Source: Methanolobus sp. WCC4 (GTDB taxonomy: Archaea > Halobacteriota > Methanosarcinia > Methanosarcinales > Methanosarcinaceae). From it: DNA of 64,000 nt. The notes under the pieces were generated by a model, which was not told the origin of the DNA, did not search any database, and saw nothing but the letters and a program-made list of their open reading frames with translations. Within the stretch, counting starts at the first letter, position 1. Every line of letters begins with the position of its first letter. The translations under genes were made by a program, and so were the position numbers. Location of the stretch: the NCBI RefSeq assembly GCF_038022665.1, contig NZ_CP150629.1, forward strand, positions 682,001 to 746,000, given 5' to 3'. Below, in pieces: positions 1,893-9,940 of the stretch.

Positions 1893-2175
1893 GTGACTTT
1901 TTCCCTTTCACTGCAATTGATTATTGGTGTCTGCCTTGGTAGCTGGCAGATGGTAGTTTGATAAGAAGATATCGAGTTTTTATTTAATACTTCTTGTTGT
2001 GTGGGCGGAATGCAATTACAAATGTATCATTTTCTTACGTGGCGTTCTATTTTTTAGATTATTGTAAAACTAATAAATATGGGACTTAATCAGTAAATTT
2101 TTATACCGCAGGGGAGCTATGAATTACAACTCATATTTTTTCTATGGGTTAATGTTCGTTGGTGAGTTATCAATT

Positions 2176-3603
2176 ATGGCTTCTGATTTTGTAATACGCG
2201 AGAAAGAACTTGATTACACTCTTCCATTAAAGGAAAGTGAGATTCTTGAGTTGAAAAGATCGACCTCTGAGCTCAAAGAGGCTATTATCTCCATTGTTGC
2301 TATGCTGAACAAGCATCAGGAAGGAGAGATTTATTTTGGTGTAAAGGATGATGGAACTGTGCTGGGGCAGGAACTCGGCAGAAAAACATTAAGGGACATA
2401 TCAAGGGCTATAGCTGATAATATTGAGCCTTCAGTTCATCCTTTTGTCTATCAGGTGGAAATTGAAGACAAGAAGTGTATACTTGTGGAGTTTTCAGGCT
2501 CAAATGTGCCATATTTTGCTTATGGCAGGGCTTATGTAAGAGTTGCAGATGAAGACAGACGTCTTAGTATCCATGAACTTGAGAATATGATACTGGAAAA
2601 GAATCGGAACAAGTTGCGCTGGGATACTGAAGTTTGCAAGGATGCTACTCTGGATGACATAAGTGATGAGAAGTTCATTTCTTTTATGAAAGGTGCTGGA
2701 AGGCTGTACAATGATGACCTGTACGGTTCTATGAACAAACTGAAACTTCTTTCAGATGGCAAGCCTACTAATGCGGCAGTCATTCTTTTTGGAAAATCTC
2801 CTGAGGATCTTTTTCCTAACGCAAGGTTGAGATGTGCTGTTTTTGCAAGGGAAGATACGTCTCTTATTGTTGATATGCAGGACTTTTCCGGGAATCTGTT
2901 TTACCTGATAGAACAGGCTGAGAAGTATGTGCTTTCAAATATCCATGTGGGCATGGGACTTGATGGTATGAAACGTGTCGATGTTCCGGAAATTGAAAAG
3001 TACGCACTGAGAGAGGCTATTGTCAATGCTTTCTGTCACAGGGATTATTTCGAGTATGATTCTGTTAATGTGGCAATATTCAAAGACAGGGTTGAGATAA
3101 GGAATAAAGGGCGCCTCTATGGTGGATTGTCAGTTGAATTGATTCGTTCTGGAATGTTCTCAGAGCGCAGGAATGAGCTGATTGCAGATATCTTTCATGA
3201 AGCCGGACTGGTCGAAAAATGGGGTGCTGGCATCCGTAAGATTTTGGATGCAGAGCCGGAAACGACCTTTGAAGAAGTTGGCACACAGTTCATCGTAACT
3301 TTCAAAAGGACTACATCTGAGGTTCTTGAAAGTGAAACAAGAGATTCATTGCATGAAAAGGTCGGTGATAGGGTCGGAGAAAAGGTCGGTGATAGGGTCG
3401 GAGAAAATCTCACACCAAATCAACGAAAGATTATTGACCTTATTTTGGAAGACCCTTTCATTTCTGCCAGATTGTTATCCGGGTCAGTCGGCATCTCCCA
3501 GAGGAAGATAGAGATGAATGTCGCCAAATTAAAGAAAAAAGGTCTTCTCAGGCGTGTAGGTCCAGCAAGAGGCGGCCATTGGGAAGTTATCGATGGTGAA
3601 TAA
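2176..3603 (+). CDS. AlbA-domain / HATPase-like putative DNA-binding regulator
   Basis: The N-terminus (about 15-150) looks like a divergent AAA-4/AlbA_2 domain (ELKRSTSELKEAI, then a glycine-rich IYFGVKDDGTVLG strand). The middle carries a HATPase_c_4-type module (EAIVNAFCHRDY near 280, GAGIRKI near 350). The last 60 residues form a winged helix. Such proteins often sit beside Type I restriction genes, as here (165 bp before hsdR), and are thought to act as regulators or defence accessories; the exact role is unknown. I chose the ATG at 2176 because GGTGAG lies 9 bases upstream; an in-frame ATG at 2119 would add 19 unconserved residues. A 24-bp tandem repeat encodes a GDRVGEKV-like linker near 394-412. 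Confidence 0.85.
   Translation: MASDFVIREKELDYTLPLKESEILELKRSTSELKEAIISIVAMLNKHQEGEIYFGVKDDGTVLGQELGRKTLRDISRAIADNIEPSVHPFVYQVEIEDKKCILVEFSGSNVPYFAYGRAYVRVADEDRRLSIHELENMILEKNRNKLRWDTEVCKDATLDDISDEKFISFMKGAGRLYNDDLYGSMNKLKLLSDGKPTNAAVILFGKSPEDLFPNARLRCAVFAREDTSLIVDMQDFSGNLFYLIEQAEKYVLSNIHVGMGLDGMKRVDVPEIEKYALREAIVNAFCHRDYFEYDSVNVAIFKDRVEIRNKGRLYGGLSVELIRSGMFSERRNELIADIFHEAGLVEKWGAGIRKILDAEPETTFEEVGTQFIVTFKRTTSEVLESETRDSLHEKVGDRVGEKVGDRVGENLTPNQRKIIDLILEDPFISARLLSGSVGISQRKIEMNVAKLKKKGLLRRVGPARGGHWEVIDGE
3358..3408 (+). repeat. 24-bp tandem repeat, about two copies, in coding sequence
   Basis: A 24-base unit containing GGTCGGTGATAGGGTCGG is repeated in tandem and in frame. It encodes the repeated octapeptide GDRVGEKV in the linker between the ATPase-like and winged-helix parts of the upstream regulator. 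Copy number can change by slippage without breaking the frame. Confidence 0.8.
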
Positions 3604-3768: not shown

Positions 3769-6057
3769 ATGACTGATATTGACAAAAGAAGCCTCAGTGA
3801 AAGAGACATCTGTACTAAGTACATCACTCCTGCAATCAAAAAAGCAGGGTGGAATCTGCATACTCAAGTACGTGAAGAAGTGTTTCTGACAGATGGAAGG
3901 GTTATTGTCGATGGCCAGAAAGTTTCCCGTGGAACAAGAAAACGTGCTGATTATGTTCTTTACTACAAGCCCAACATCCCATTAGCTATTGTTGAAGCTA
4001 AGAAAAATGAATATGAAGTCGGAAAAGGGATGCAACAGGCACTTGAATACACTCAGATGATGGAGTTACCTTTTGCTTTTAGTTCCAACGGTGATGCTTT
4101 TCTTTTTCGGGACAATTCAGGAAACTCTGACCTTGTAGAAAAAGAACTTCCATTGGATAGTTTCCCTTCGCCTGAAGAGTTATGGGAGTCTTATTGTAAA
4201 TGGAAAGGTATCGATGAGATTGAACATACTTCGATAGATCAGGATTACTATTCAGATCTCACAGGTAAAAGTCCGCGATACTATCAGGTGAATGCAATAA
4301 ACAAGACCATAGAAGCTATATCCAAAGGTCAAAACCGTATTTTACTTGTGATGGCTACTGGGACTGGAAAGATGTATACAGCATTTCATATCATCTGGAG
4401 GTTATGGAAATCCAAAGTTAAAAAAAGAATTCTTTTCCTCGTTGACAGGGATGTTCTTGCCAGTCAGGCAAAAAACAAGGATTTCAAGCCTTTTGGCAAT
4501 GCAATGACAAGAATAGATAAACGGAAGGTAGACACATCTTATGAGATCTACCTGTCCCTATATCAGGCTGTTACCGGCTCTGAAGAAGAGAAAAATATCT
4601 ATAAGCAGTTCTCAAAGGATTTCTTCGACCTTATTGTTGTAGATGAGTGTCACCGGGGCAGTGCTGATGAGAATTCGGCATGGAGAGAGATTCTGGAGTA
4701 TTTTGATTCTGCAACCCAGATAGGGATGACGGCTACACCAAAGGAAACGAAGACCGTTTCAAACATTGAATATTTTGGAGAGCCGATTTACACCTACTCA
4801 CTGAAACAGGGTATTGAAGATGGTTTCCTCGCGCCCTATAAGGTCATCCGTATTGACCTTGACAAGGATCTGCAGGGCTGGAGACCTGAAAGGGGGCAAC
4901 TGGATAAGTACGGCAGGGAAATTGAGGACCGCATATACAACCAGAAGGATTTCGATCGCAAAGTTGTTCTCGAGAAAAGGACTGAGATCGTTGCCAGAAA
5001 GGTCACTGAGTTCCTTAAAGCTACCAATCGTTATGATAAGACCATTGTTTTCTGTGAGAACATCGATCACGCCGAAAGAATGAGACAGGCTATTGTTAAT
5101 GAGAATCCCGACCTTGTGGATGAAACTAAATATGTGATGAGGATCACAGGTGATGAAAAGGAAGGTAAAGCTGAACTTGATAATTTCACTCTGCCTGAAT
5201 GCAAATATCCTGTCATTGCCACGACATCAAAACTCCTGACCACCGGTGTTGATGTGCAGACCTGTAAACTCATTGTGCTTGATAAGAGAATCCAGTCCAT
5301 GACCGAGTTCAAGCAGATAATCGGTAGGGGAACTCGTATCCATGAGGAATATGAGAAGCTCTTTTTTACGATAATGGATTTCAAGAAGGCTACGGAATTG
5401 TTTGCAGACCCTGACTTTGACGGGGAACCTGTTGACATTTATGAGGGGAAGGCAGATGTTCCTCTAAAACCGAGTTTACCGGGCCATAAGATCAAACCGT
5501 ACAAGGTTCCTGATGTGGGAGTTTCCATTGTGGCTGAAAGGGTTCAGTATTATGGAACTGACGGGAAGCTTATCACTGAATCGATCAAGGATTATACACG
5601 CAAGACCCTGCTTGATGAATTCGAATCCCTTGATATGTTCCTGCAATACTGGAGTGATAGCGGCAAGAAGATGGCAATAATTCAGGAGCTTGAAGATAAG
5701 GGTTTGATGCTGGATGCCCTTGCAGAGGAGATCGGCAGGGAATACGACCCGTTCGATCTTATCTGTCATGTTGTGTTTGACCAGCCGCCACTGAGTCGTA
5801 AGGATAGGGCGAATAATGTCAGGAATAATGGTTATTTTGCTAAATACGGGGAAAATGCACGTGCTGTTTTGAATGCTCTTCTGGATAAGTATGCGGATGA
5901 GGGCATAAGGAATCTTGAGGATATGGATGTTCTGAGGGTGAAGCCGCTTAACGACCTTGGAACGCCTATGGGGATCATCAAGCTGTTTGGTGGCAAGCAG
6001 AATTTCATTGATGCGGTTTCGGAAATGGAAACACAATTATACATGGCTGAAGCTTAA
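3769..6057 (+). CDS. hsdR: Type I restriction endonuclease subunit HsdR
   Basis: HsdR is the motor and nuclease subunit of Type I restriction complexes: it translocates DNA with ATP and cuts unmethylated DNA. This 762-residue copy is of the short EcoEI-like type. Residues 1-100 hold the nuclease (D61 and E76-A-K78, a PD-(D/E)xK core). The helicase follows: Walker A ATGTGKM (K201), DECH box (292-295), TATP (321-324), and motif [14 protein letters not shown]. The C-terminus matches the EcoEI_R_C region. Walker A has Met at 202 where Thr or Ser is expected, which could weaken ATP binding. It is first in an hsdR-M-S order; the hsdM start is 32 bp after its stop. Confidence 0.95.
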
Positions 6058-6089: not shown

Positions 6090-7539
6090 ATGTCAATTAG
6101 TACCACTATCAAAAGCATACAGGACATAATGAGGAAAGACGCGGGTGTGGACGGAGACGCACAGCGTATCAGCCAGCTCGTATGGATGATGTTCCTCAAG
6201 ATATTCGATGACAGGGAAGAAGAATATGAGTTGATTGAGGAGGATTACGAGTCTCCTATCCCTGAGCATCTGAGGTGGAGGAACTGGGCAAAGAACCCGG
6301 AGGGAATCACCGGGGAAGAGTTGCTTGACCTTGTGAACAATGACCTTTTCAAAACTCTGAAAGACCTTCAGTTCAATCCTGATTCCGACCCACGCGGTTT
6401 TGTGGTGCGCGACGTTTTTGAGGATTCATACAACTACATGAAGAACGGCACTCTGATACGTCAGGTTGTCAACAAGATCAATGAGATCGACTTTAACAGT
6501 TCCAAGGACCGGCACCTTTTCGGTGATGTGTACGAGAAGATCCTCAAGGACCTGCAAAGTGCCGGAAATGCAGGTGAGTTCTACACACCCCGTGCTGTGA
6601 CCGAGTTCATGGTGTAGATGACGGACCCGAAGATAGGTGAGAGTATCCTTGACCCTGCCTGTGGAACTGGAGGTTTTCTCACTTCTTCTATCGAACACCT
6701 GAAAAAGCAGGTAGAAACCGTTGAGGATGAGGATAACCTGCAAAAATCTATCCACGGCGTTGAGAAAAAGCCACTTCCTCACCTGCTCTGTGTCACCAAC
6801 ATGATGTTACACGGCATCAAGAACCCCCTCGCAGATCAAGAGGGATAACTCCCTTGCAAGACCTCTGAGAGATTACAACCCATCTGACAGGGTGGATGTG
6901 ATAATTACCAATCCGCCATTTGGAGGCACGGAGGAAGACGGCATTGAAACAGGTTTCCCGGCATCCTACCGAACAAGGGAAACAGCCGACCTTTTCCTTG
7001 TACTCATCGTTCACCTGCTCAAAGATAAAGGACGAGGCGCAATAGTTCTCCCTGACGGCACACTCTTCGGCGAAGGTGTGAAGACCCGCATCAAGGAGAA
7101 ACTTCTCAACGAGTGCAACCTGCACACCATCGTGCGCCTGCCAAATGGTGTTTTCAATCCCTACACCGGCATCAAAACAAACTTGCTCTTTTTCACTAAA
7201 GGCGAGCCAACCAAGGAGATATGGTATTACGAACACCCATATCCTGATGGCTACAAGTCCTACTCCAAGACAAAACCAATGCGAATTCAGGAGTTCAAAC
7301 CCGAAAAAGCATGGTGGGAAAACCGCGAGGAAAATGAGTTTACCTGGAAGGTCACAATCGACGAGATCAAGGCCAACAACTACAACCTCGATATCAAGAA
7401 CCCCCACGTCACAGACATCGACCACGGCGACCCCGAAGAACTCCTCGCTGACTACAAAACCCTCCTCTCAGAGATCGAAGACACCCGCAACACCCTGAAA
7501 GCAGAACTCATGGCAGCCCTTGAGGGAAAGAACCCATGA
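6090..7539 (+). pseudogene. hsdM: Type I DNA methyltransferase subunit HsdM, disrupted (in-frame UAG and +1 frameshift)
   Basis: HsdM is the adenine methyltransferase of the Type I complex. The parts are clear: an HsdM N-terminal helical domain (6090-6560), SAM-binding motif DPACGTGGF (about 6650), catalytic NPPF (about 6909) and a C-terminal tail reaching hsdS. The frame is broken twice. TAG at 6615-6617 interrupts ...EFMV-MTDPK.... A run of five C (6823-6827) shifts the frame; with four C, the sequence continues K-N-P-S-Q-I-K-R-D-N-S into the downstream frame. Outside these sites it is well preserved. Options are a recent pseudogene, sequencing errors, or UAG read as pyrrolysine (possible in Methanosarcinaceae), though Pyl would not fix the frameshift. 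Confidence 0.85.
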
Positions 7540-9236
7540 ACCCCGATTCCTTTTTCGAGAACTTTTCCCTGCTTGCAGAAACCCCAAACGGTATCCAGAA
7601 GCTGCGCGAGATGATACTGCAAATGGCAGTGCAGGGAAAGCTTGTACCGCAAAATCCAGATGATGAGCCTGCGGAAGTGTTGTTGGAGATGATTAGGGTT
7701 GAGATGGTGAGGTTGGCTAAGGATGGCATCATCAAGAAAAGTGCGAACTTGCCTTCGGTTGAGGTCGATGAAATAGCTTATGAAATTCCTGATAATTGGT
7801 ATTGGACAAGGCTTGGAACAATAGGAATCATAAATCCAAAGAATAATGTATCAGATGATTTGGATGTTTCATTTATTCCTATGACTTTGTTATCTGAAAA
7901 ATATGGTGATGATGTTGTTTATGATACGAGGTCATGGAAAGAAATTAAAAAAGGATATACGCATTTTGCTGAAAATGATGTTGTTGTGGCAAAAATAACA
8001 CCATGTTTTCAGAATGGCAAATCTGCTGTAATGAAAGGATTGAAAAATGGCGTAGGTGCAGGTACTACAGAATTGTATGTATTTAGGTCAATAACAGAAT
8101 ATACCTATCCATATTATGTATTATTGTATTTTAGAAGCCCACAGTTTATTCAAAAAGGAATTACAAAAACAACAGGTACAGCAAATCAAAAAAGAATACC
8201 GCGTGACTATTTTTTGCAAAATCCATTTCCCCTTCCCCCTCTCGAAGAACAAAAACGCATCGTAGCCAAAGTCGACCAGCTCATGGAACTCTGCGACCAG
8301 CTCGAATCCCTACAACAGCAGAAGCAGGAAAGCCGCATTCATCTCAACAATGCTGCCCTCAACAAGATGCTAGAAACTGGCAGCCCGGAGGAGTTTGCAG
8401 AAAACTGGCGGCTCGTATGCGATAATTTCGGGCTGCTCTATGATAATCTGGAAAACGTGGAGAAACTGAGGCAGGCTATTTTGCAGCTTGCGGTGATGGG
8501 TAAGCTTGTGGAGCAGGATGACAGGGATGAGCCTGCTGAAGTGTTGTTGGAAAAGATTAGGGATGAAAAAGAGAAGTTGGTTAAAGAAGGCGAAATAAGG
8601 AATAGCAAACCACTACCATCAATTGAAAAGGAAGAAAATCCTTTTGAGTTACCACATAACTGGAAATGGGAAAGACTAGGAAATTTAGTTTCTTTGTTAG
8701 GTGATGGATTACATGGTACTCCAAACTACTCAGAGCATGGTGATTATTTCTTCATAAACGGGAACAATTTGAAAAACGGGAAAATTATTGTCAAAAGCAA
8801 TACAAAAACAGTATCTTTGGAAGAATTCAATAAACACAAGAAATCATTGAATGAAAATACTGTATTGGTTTCAATAAATGGCACATTAGGCAATGTTGCT
8901 TTCTATAATAATGAAAAAGTAATCTTGGGAAAGAGTGCATGTTACTTTAATTTACTAGGCAATTTGGACAAATTTTATATTAAGATATTAATTGAGACTG
9001 GATATTTTTTGGATTACGCTTTTGAAAATGCTACTGGCAGTACAATCAAGAATGTTTCACTGAAATCTATGAGGTTATTTTTAGTTCCACTTCCTCCTCT
9101 CGAAGAACAAAAACGCATCGTAGCCAAAGTCGATCAGCTTATGGAACTCTGCGACCAGCTCGAATCTAACATAAGGCAGGCGCAGGAAGATGGGGAGAGG
9201 CTGATGGAAGCTGCAGTTAATGATCTTTTAGAATAA
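7536..9236 (+). CDS. hsdS: Type I restriction specificity subunit HsdS
   Basis: HsdS reads the bipartite target sequence and positions HsdM and HsdR. The 566-residue protein has two target-recognition domains (about 85-235 and 375-520), each followed by the conserved helix beginning PLEEQKRIVAKVDQ. Each half also starts with a similar segment (EPAEVLLE near 44 and 332), the usual circular two-fold organisation. The start overlaps the hsdM stop (ATGA), indicating translational coupling. The recognition domains are AT-rich compared with the flanking helices, a sign of horizontal exchange. Two 71-bp near-identical repeats after the two recognition domains could allow recombination. Confidence 0.95.
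   Translation: MNPDSFFENFSLLAETPNGIQKLREMILQMAVQGKLVPQNPDDEPAEVLLEMIRVEMVRLAKDGIIKKSANLPSVEVDEIAYEIPDNWYWTRLGTIGIINPKNNVSDDLDVSFIPMTLLSEKYGDDVVYDTRSWKEIKKGYTHFAENDVVVAKITPCFQNGKSAVMKGLKNGVGAGTTELYVFRSITEYTYPYYVLLYFRSPQFIQKGITKTTGTANQKRIPRDYFLQNPFPLPPLEEQKRIVAKVDQLMELCDQLESLQQQKQESRIHLNNAALNKMLETGSPEEFAENWRLVCDNFGLLYDNLENVEKLRQAILQLAVMGKLVEQDDRDEPAEVLLEKIRDEKEKLVKEGEIRNSKPLPSIEKEENPFELPHNWKWERLGNLVSLLGDGLHGTPNYSEHGDYFFINGNNLKNGKIIVKSNTKTVSLEEFNKHKKSLNENTVLVSINGTLGNVAFYNNEKVILGKSACYFNLLGNLDKFYIKILIETGYFLDYAFENATGSTIKNVSLKSMRLFLVPLPPLEEQKRIVAKVDQLMELCDQLESNIRQAQEDGERLMEAAVNDLLE
8238..8308 (+). repeat. Copy 1 of 71-bp direct repeat in hsdS
   Basis: This 71-base segment, starting CCTCTCGAAGAACAAAAACG, encodes the conserved helix after recognition domain 1. 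It matches 9096-9166 at 69 of 71 positions, by eye. Confidence 0.9.
9096..9166 (+). repeat. Copy 2 of 71-bp direct repeat in hsdS
   Basis: This is the second copy, after recognition domain 2. It differs from copy 1 only by two C-to-T changes, both silent (GAC/GAT and CTC/CTT). Such near-identity at the DNA level goes beyond what protein conservation needs. Confidence 0.9.
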
Positions 9237-9292: not shown

Positions 9293-9940
9293 ATGGACGT
9301 TAAAGAAAGAATTGCTACAATTGAGTTTTTCATCGACAGCTCAAGATATCACTATGATATTCTCAAACAAAAATTATCAAATTCAAACAAACCTGTAGTT
9401 GATGAAAAGGGGCTTCGTAGTAAAACTGGAAAAGGCAGAATTGAATTTAGAATTCCTGTAGAATTCTCATATCAAAAGGGCTTTGCTGTGGAATTGTATG
9501 AATTCTATTCTTTCATCAGTTCAGTTATGGCATCAATTAATGGTATGATTGATTTAAAATGCAGGATTGTTGATGGTTATGATGCAGAGCATTCATTCTC
9601 TTTTGGTCAATATATGAATAAAAAAGCTATTAGAAAATTGCCGGACTTCAAAGAGTCTTCAATCCACGAATTAATTCTCCAAAATTCAGAGTGGATAGAT
9701 GAAATAAAGGAAGCAAGAAATACAATTCAGCATAAACCAATACAAACATTTTTTCAGGCACAGTTGGTGTTTAAAGCAGGAGTTGACAGTCAAGATCAAT
9801 TTAATGATGACAGTTATGTAGAAATGTATGTTCCTTTAATGCATGAAGAGCCAAAAGAAGTAATTCAATTTTGCAATGATACTTTGATAAATTTGGAAAC
9901 ATTTTGGGAATCCATAAAAATGGAGTGTTTGGACTTATAG
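9293..9940 (+). CDS. HEPN-like protein associated with the Type I R-M locus
   Basis: The 215-residue protein lacks a signal peptide or membrane segment. The C-terminal half is predicted helical and contains R142-N-T-I-Q-H147, an Rx4H motif preceded by an acidic helix, as in HEPN domains. Many HEPN proteins are RNases in toxin-antitoxin, CRISPR or abortive-infection systems; others are inactive. The gene is AT-rich, follows hsdS by 56 bp on the same strand and is bounded by the convergent DUF1614 gene, so it looks like the last gene of the defence island. It ends in TAG. HEPN assignment rests on the motif and context only. Confidence 0.7.
   Translation: MDVKERIATIEFFIDSSRYHYDILKQKLSNSNKPVVDEKGLRSKTGKGRIEFRIPVEFSYQKGFAVELYEFYSFISSVMASINGMIDLKCRIVDGYDAEHSFSFGQYMNKKAIRKLPDFKESSIHELILQNSEWIDEIKEARNTIQHKPIQTFFQAQLVFKAGVDSQDQFNDDSYVEMYVPLMHEEPKEVIQFCNDTLINLETFWESIKMECLDL

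What the first reader, a model, noticed from the sequence alone, without database searches (positions are those of the whole stretch)
9293..9940. HEPN-like gene tied to a Type I restriction locus
An Rx4H motif (142-147) in a helical C-terminus, AT-rich composition and position right after hsdS suggest an RNase-type effector guarded by, or backing up, the restriction system. With the modification gene damaged, such a backup would be notable. I do not recall this exact gene order as a named system.
Basis: inference. Interest (0 to 1): 0.6.

Follow-up and report, generated by a model that had tools for sequence, protein, structure and literature searches.

The report
Solitary HEPN gene beside restriction genes
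A methane-producing archaeon carries a small gene that probably encodes an RNA-cutting HEPN protein of an unnamed family, sitting as an accessory next to a DNA restriction system; pairing these two kinds of gene is already a known theme, and restriction genes are broken or missing at all three places where it sits beside them.

Summary
Five copies, this one included, exist in the archaeal phylum sample; R142, H147 and a polar residue after R are kept in all. AlphaFold predicts HEPN-like order: long helices 3-27, 62-93, 132-145 and 187-213, with Rx4H at the end of helix 3. HepT/HEPN structures lead the structural matches (Z about 10). So 'HEPN-like' is well supported, as an unclassified family.

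The restriction link is partly right. In three species of the genus, the hsdS 3' end plus this gene is one conserved DNA block at two chromosomal sites. Two family-level homologues are not beside hsdS; one follows a viperin gene. Fifteen related hsd loci lack the gene; some hold Hachiman, Septu or HepT/MntA near that position.

The 'guarded by the RM system' idea is not supported. In all three hsdS-linked loci different hsd genes are broken, yet the HEPN gene is intact and constrained (dN/dS 0.16-0.21). Best reading: an autonomous HEPN RNase defence cargo. New member of a known kind; the HEPN-RM theme was published in 2013.

The parts
9293..9940 (+). HEPN-like gene, 215 aa; predicted metal-independent RNase, unclassified HEPN family
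9716..9733 (+). R142-N-T-I-Q-H147 (Rx4H) predicted active site at the end of helix 3
9551..9565 (+). D87-L-K-C-R91, invariant acidic/basic pair in helix 2, possible counterpart of the superfamily's Ex3[KR] motif
9755..9829 (+). predicted beta-strand insert (residues about 155-179) between helix 3 and helix 4, low confidence
7536..9236 (+). hsdS, 566 aa; its 3' end plus the HEPN gene is one conserved block in three species
6090..7539 (+). hsdM, broken: in-frame TAG after codon 175 and a one-base insertion near 6820-6824
3769..6057 (+). hsdR, 762 aa, intact
2119..3603 (+). Schlafen AlbA_2 / HATPase_c_4 / wHTH protein upstream of hsdR; not part of the conserved block

Best explanation
The gene encodes a small solitary HEPN-fold protein of an unclassified family. 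It most likely works as a homodimeric, metal-independent RNase with R142 and H147 as catalytic residues, and it is carried as an autonomous anti-virus or dormancy effector in a cargo position 3' of hsdS. It would be held inactive by itself or by a factor not seen here, and be set off by infection, cutting host or viral RNA. It was picked up by the hsd locus in one genus and travels with the hsdS 3' end, but does not need a working restriction system. Shown: the ORF, motif conservation, predicted helix order, linkage block, broken RM genes, selective constraint. Inferred: RNase activity, dimer, trigger, defence role.
For: R142, N/D143 and H147 kept in all five copies. The published HEPN signature has a polar residue (mostly N, D or H) after R, and the motif at the helix 3 end (PMC3710099). 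Model helices 3-27, 62-93, 132-145, 187-213. About 14 of the first 19 VIA-align rows are HepT/HEPN entries, best Z 10.6 over 127 residues, rmsd 3.1. Three of the eight weak Pfam matches are HEPN families. hhalign puts RNTIQH on the ApeA RN(x3)H motif in register. No MNT or other partner gene is adjacent. Continuous block hsdS 3' end-HEPN at 80-82% nucleotide identity in G008 and G007, G008 at another chromosomal site. dN/dS 0.16-0.21 among the three. Sister loci carry Hachiman, Septu or HepT/MntA near the same position. The G148 homologue follows a prokaryotic viperin gene.
Against: No HEPN library model reaches its cut-off. The model has mean pLDDT 72 from only five sequences, and a model of the G096 homologue is poor (pLDDT 52). 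Z near 10 is within the range unrelated helical bundles can reach, and Foldseek gave no match at E<=0.001. RNase activity and any defence role are untested. Only five copies, all in one archaeal family.
Confidence: 0.62

Rival explanations
1. A PrrC-like guard: the Hsd complex holds the HEPN RNase inactive, and loss or inhibition of the RM system frees it to kill the cell.
For: Directly 3' of hsdS in three species of the genus; the hsdS-HEPN block moves as a unit; the PrrC-PrrI precedent and its extension to other HEPN clades (PMC3710099).
Against: hsdM is broken in G000, the hsdR N-terminus is replaced in G008, hsdS is truncated beside a transposase gene and hsdM/hsdR are missing in G007, yet all three HEPN genes are intact. 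Two homologues lie away from hsdS. No ABC ATPase domain.
Confidence: 0.12
2. Toxin of a toxin-antitoxin pair, with an antitoxin that is a small RNA or a protein encoded elsewhere.
For: HepT is the closest structural neighbour; toxins with unusual or remote antitoxins exist (own knowledge).
Against: No recognisable MNT, RHH or HTH antitoxin gene next to any of the five copies; in G007 an ImmA-like and a DUF4411 gene lie nearby on the other strand but are absent from the other loci.
Confidence: 0.13
3. A non-catalytic HEPN-fold RNA- or nucleotide-binding protein with a regulatory role, for example on the hsd locus.
For: Some HEPN families are non-catalytic (PMC3710099); no toxicity has been shown.
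Against: Both catalytic residues and a polar residue after R are kept in all five copies, whereas non-catalytic families tend to lose the motif.
Confidence: 0.08
4. Not a HEPN protein: an unrelated helical protein with a chance Rx4H.
For: No family model over cut-off; Z about 10 is not decisive for helical bundles.
Against: Several signs agree: motif type, place at the end of helix 3, conservation, HEPN-rich structural neighbours, in-register ApeA alignment.
Confidence: 0.05

Closest known systems
HepT of the HepT-MntA (HEPN-MNT) toxin-antitoxin system
   Same: closest solved folds (6m6w, 7bxo, 6m6u; Z 10-10.6); Rx4H type active site
   Different: 215 aa instead of about 130; long stretch between helices 1 and 2 and a beta-strand insert between helices 3 and 4; no MNT partner gene; no Pfam match
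PrrC with the PrrI Type I RM system
   Same: HEPN RNase type gene associated with hsdRMS
   Different: no ABC ATPase domain; the RM genes here are broken while the HEPN gene is intact; not always near hsd
ApeA-type HEPN (PF18739)
   Same: motif RN(x3)H aligned in register; ApeA also occurs in RM loci (PMC3710099)
   Different: sub-threshold match only (12.1 against a cut-off of 24.4 bits); the archaeal ApeA matches found here lie in open frames of 478-541 codons
Genes embedded in RM clusters (such as tgvAB in Vibrio cholerae, PMC11411939)
   Same: independent defence cargo lodged in a Type I RM cluster
   Different: TgvAB is a GmrSD-like DNA restriction pair, not a HEPN protein

Membership tests
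HEPN superfamily | Rx4-6H motif with a polar residue after R, conserved in the family | tested here: met
   RN/RD-x3-H in all five copies; signature as described in PMC3710099
HEPN superfamily | two alpha-hairpins, motif at the end of helix 3 | tested here: met
   predicted helices 3-27, 62-93, 132-145, 187-213, R142-H147 at the helix 3 end; a prediction at pLDDT 72
HEPN superfamily | significant structural match to solved HEPN domains | tested here: inconclusive
   HepT/HEPN entries lead at Z 10-10.6, but this is in the range of unrelated helical bundles; Foldseek best E 0.19
HEPN superfamily | metal-independent RNase activity | not testable with these tools
   needs a biochemical assay
Any named HEPN family in Pfam, NCBIfam or PADLOC | score over the curated cut-off | tested here: not met
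   best HEPN match in Pfam is HEPN_Cthe2314 at E 0.042, below cut-off; no PADLOC or NCBIfam HEPN match
PrrC/PrrI guard system | ABC ATPase fused to the HEPN nuclease | tested here: not met
   215 aa single domain, no such Pfam match
PrrC/PrrI guard system | linked to a complete hsdRMS | tested here: not met
   one or more hsd genes broken or missing in each of the three linked loci
HepT-MntA toxin-antitoxin | adjacent MNT nucleotidyltransferase gene | tested here: not met
   none seen next to any of the five copies

The most novel reading that the evidence does not exclude
A new stand-alone HEPN RNase defence family, confined so far to one family of methanogenic archaea, that swaps with Hachiman, Septu and toxin-antitoxin genes in a cargo position next to hsdS and outlives the restriction system that carried it.
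Probability: 0.4. Interest if true: 0.45.

Novelty: new member of a known kind. Interest (0 to 1): 0.3.

Why it matters
It adds an unclassified HEPN family to archaeal defence genes, where few systems are characterised. The three loci also bear on a published proposal, that HEPN proteins linked to RM systems are held in check by them: here the HEPN gene persists intact beside three differently broken RM loci. The exchange of cargo genes next to hsdS gives a simple place to look for further archaeal defence genes.

Tried and rejected
Homologue searches in plasmids and viral contigs gave nothing; phages gave only a chance-level hit (E 0.5), and two genome-contig scans gave no relative. The contig scans use short patterns suited to close relatives, so distant bacterial homologues are not excluded. 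PHROGs: no meaningful match. PDB by sequence: nothing. A phylum-wide profile search gave only fragmentary matches beyond the five; the best, E 5.8e-4 over 54 positions in a 62-codon frame with a TAG, was not pursued. PF18730 (Cthe_2314) was not found in 148 genomes, but the control rang nowhere, so this says nothing. Foldseek against BFVD gave no match at E<=0.001. The second model (G096 homologue) was too poor to use. The KwaB Pfam match (E 0.013, one member) was judged chance. Reading the hsdM TAG as pyrrolysine was considered, since the genome has PylS; it would not remove the frameshift.

Full report
Observation. The window is a 64 kb piece of a single-contig 2.85 Mb archaeal genome that carries PylS. 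ORF 9293-9940 (+) encodes 215 aa and begins 56 bp after hsdS. R142 and H147 are present as stated. The bare Rx4H pattern occurs in 17% of shuffles of this protein; the HEPN-type form R[NDH]x3H in 2.3%. The motif alone is therefore weak evidence; its conservation and place in the fold carry the case.

Homologues. A 60-genome search found three copies and a 393-genome search five, including the window; a profile search of 112 genomes of the family gave the same five, so the gene is sporadic. Identity to the window copy is 79, 73, 52 and 48%. R142, Q146, H147, P149 and D87-x3-R91 are invariant, and residue 143 is N or D. About a third of all columns are invariant, so invariance of two residues is supportive, not proof. 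Phylum-wide profile matches beyond these five are fragmentary, E 5.8e-4 at best over 54 positions.

Fold. The AlphaFold model (pLDDT 72, pTM 0.72) has long helices 3-27, 62-93, 132-145 and 187-213, with low-confidence strands at about 155-179. R142-H147 lies at the end of helix 3, as described for HEPN domains in PMC3710099. VIA-align ranks HepT 6m6w first (Z 10.6, rmsd 3.1, 127 aligned), and about 14 of the first 19 entries are HepT/HEPN proteins; p130Cas, metavinculin and a designed binder are mixed in at similar Z, so the fold match alone is not decisive. Foldseek itself gave no significant match. Pfam gave only sub-threshold HEPN_Apea, HEPN_Cthe2314 and HEPN_Swt1 among eight weak families. 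hhalign against archaeal ApeA sequences aligned RNTIQH with the ApeA RN(x3)H motif (P 0.023).

Restriction locus. Three same-genus copies (window, G008, G007) directly follow hsdS. The hsdS 3' end, the intergenic stretch and most of the HEPN gene form one continuous nucleotide match at 80-82%. Window and G007 share a chromosomal site next to DUF1614; G008 has the block elsewhere, so the block appears to have moved as a unit. In contrast the G148 copy follows a prokaryotic viperin (PADLOC E 2e-77), and the G096 copy lies far from that genome's hsd locus. Fifteen loci fetched around hsdM relatives (73-89% identical to the G008 HsdM) lack the HEPN gene. Downstream of hsdS they carry, for example, Hachiman HamAB (G028) or Septu PtuAB (G449) on the same strand, a HepT/MntA pair on the other strand (G185), or nothing clear.

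State of the RM genes. Window: hsdM has an in-frame TAG and a one-base insertion; it is the only N6_Mtase match in the genome. G008: HsdR residues 1 to about 69 are replaced by a PAS-kinase-like N-terminus. G007: hsdS is truncated next to a transposase gene, and no HsdM or HsdR of this family is found. G005 keeps at the same site only a short hsdS 3' fragment. The HEPN gene is intact in the first three and constrained (dN/dS 0.16-0.21, about 120 synonymous sites). This average covers the whole divergence, so it does not prove constraint after each RM lesion, and the hsdM frameshift could be a sequencing error.

Interpretation. A strict guard, in which loss of the RM system frees a killer, fits poorly with intact HEPN genes beside three different RM lesions. 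An autonomous RNase effector carried as cargo fits better. PMC3710099 already reports at least 16 HEPN clades linked to RM systems and proposes the guard model; embedded independent defence genes in Type I clusters are also published (PMC11411939). The family here appears unnamed in the libraries searched, so it is a new member of a known kind.

Noticed in passing
window 6090-7539: hsdM carries an in-frame TAG and a one-base insertion; the genome encodes PylS, so the TAG alone might be read through, but the frameshift remains.
   Followed up: partly
L004:5649-8759: In G008 a PAS-kinase-like N-terminus is fused in frame to HsdR from about residue 70, removing the start of the nuclease domain.
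   Followed up: partly
L056:7723-11191 and L058:1879-4129: Hachiman HamAB and Septu PtuAB sit directly 3' of hsdS in related hsd loci, suggesting a cargo position.
   Followed up: yes
L061:7909-8576: HepT-like and MNT-like genes lie on the opposite strand just past hsdS in G185.
   Followed up: yes
L008:10322-12818: Prokaryotic viperin gene and an unclassified 557-aa gene just upstream of the G148 homologue.
   Followed up: partly
L009:8627-9604: A 325-aa gene upstream of the G096 homologue has no Pfam match but contains a YNNLKHG stretch reminiscent of HEPN-like proteins.
   Followed up: no
L096 near 8362-8497: G005 keeps a short hsdS 3' fragment between DUF1614 and HisF, at the same site as the window's hsd locus, without the HEPN gene.
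   Followed up: partly
window 2119-3603: Schlafen AlbA_2 protein gene upstream of hsdR.
   Followed up: no
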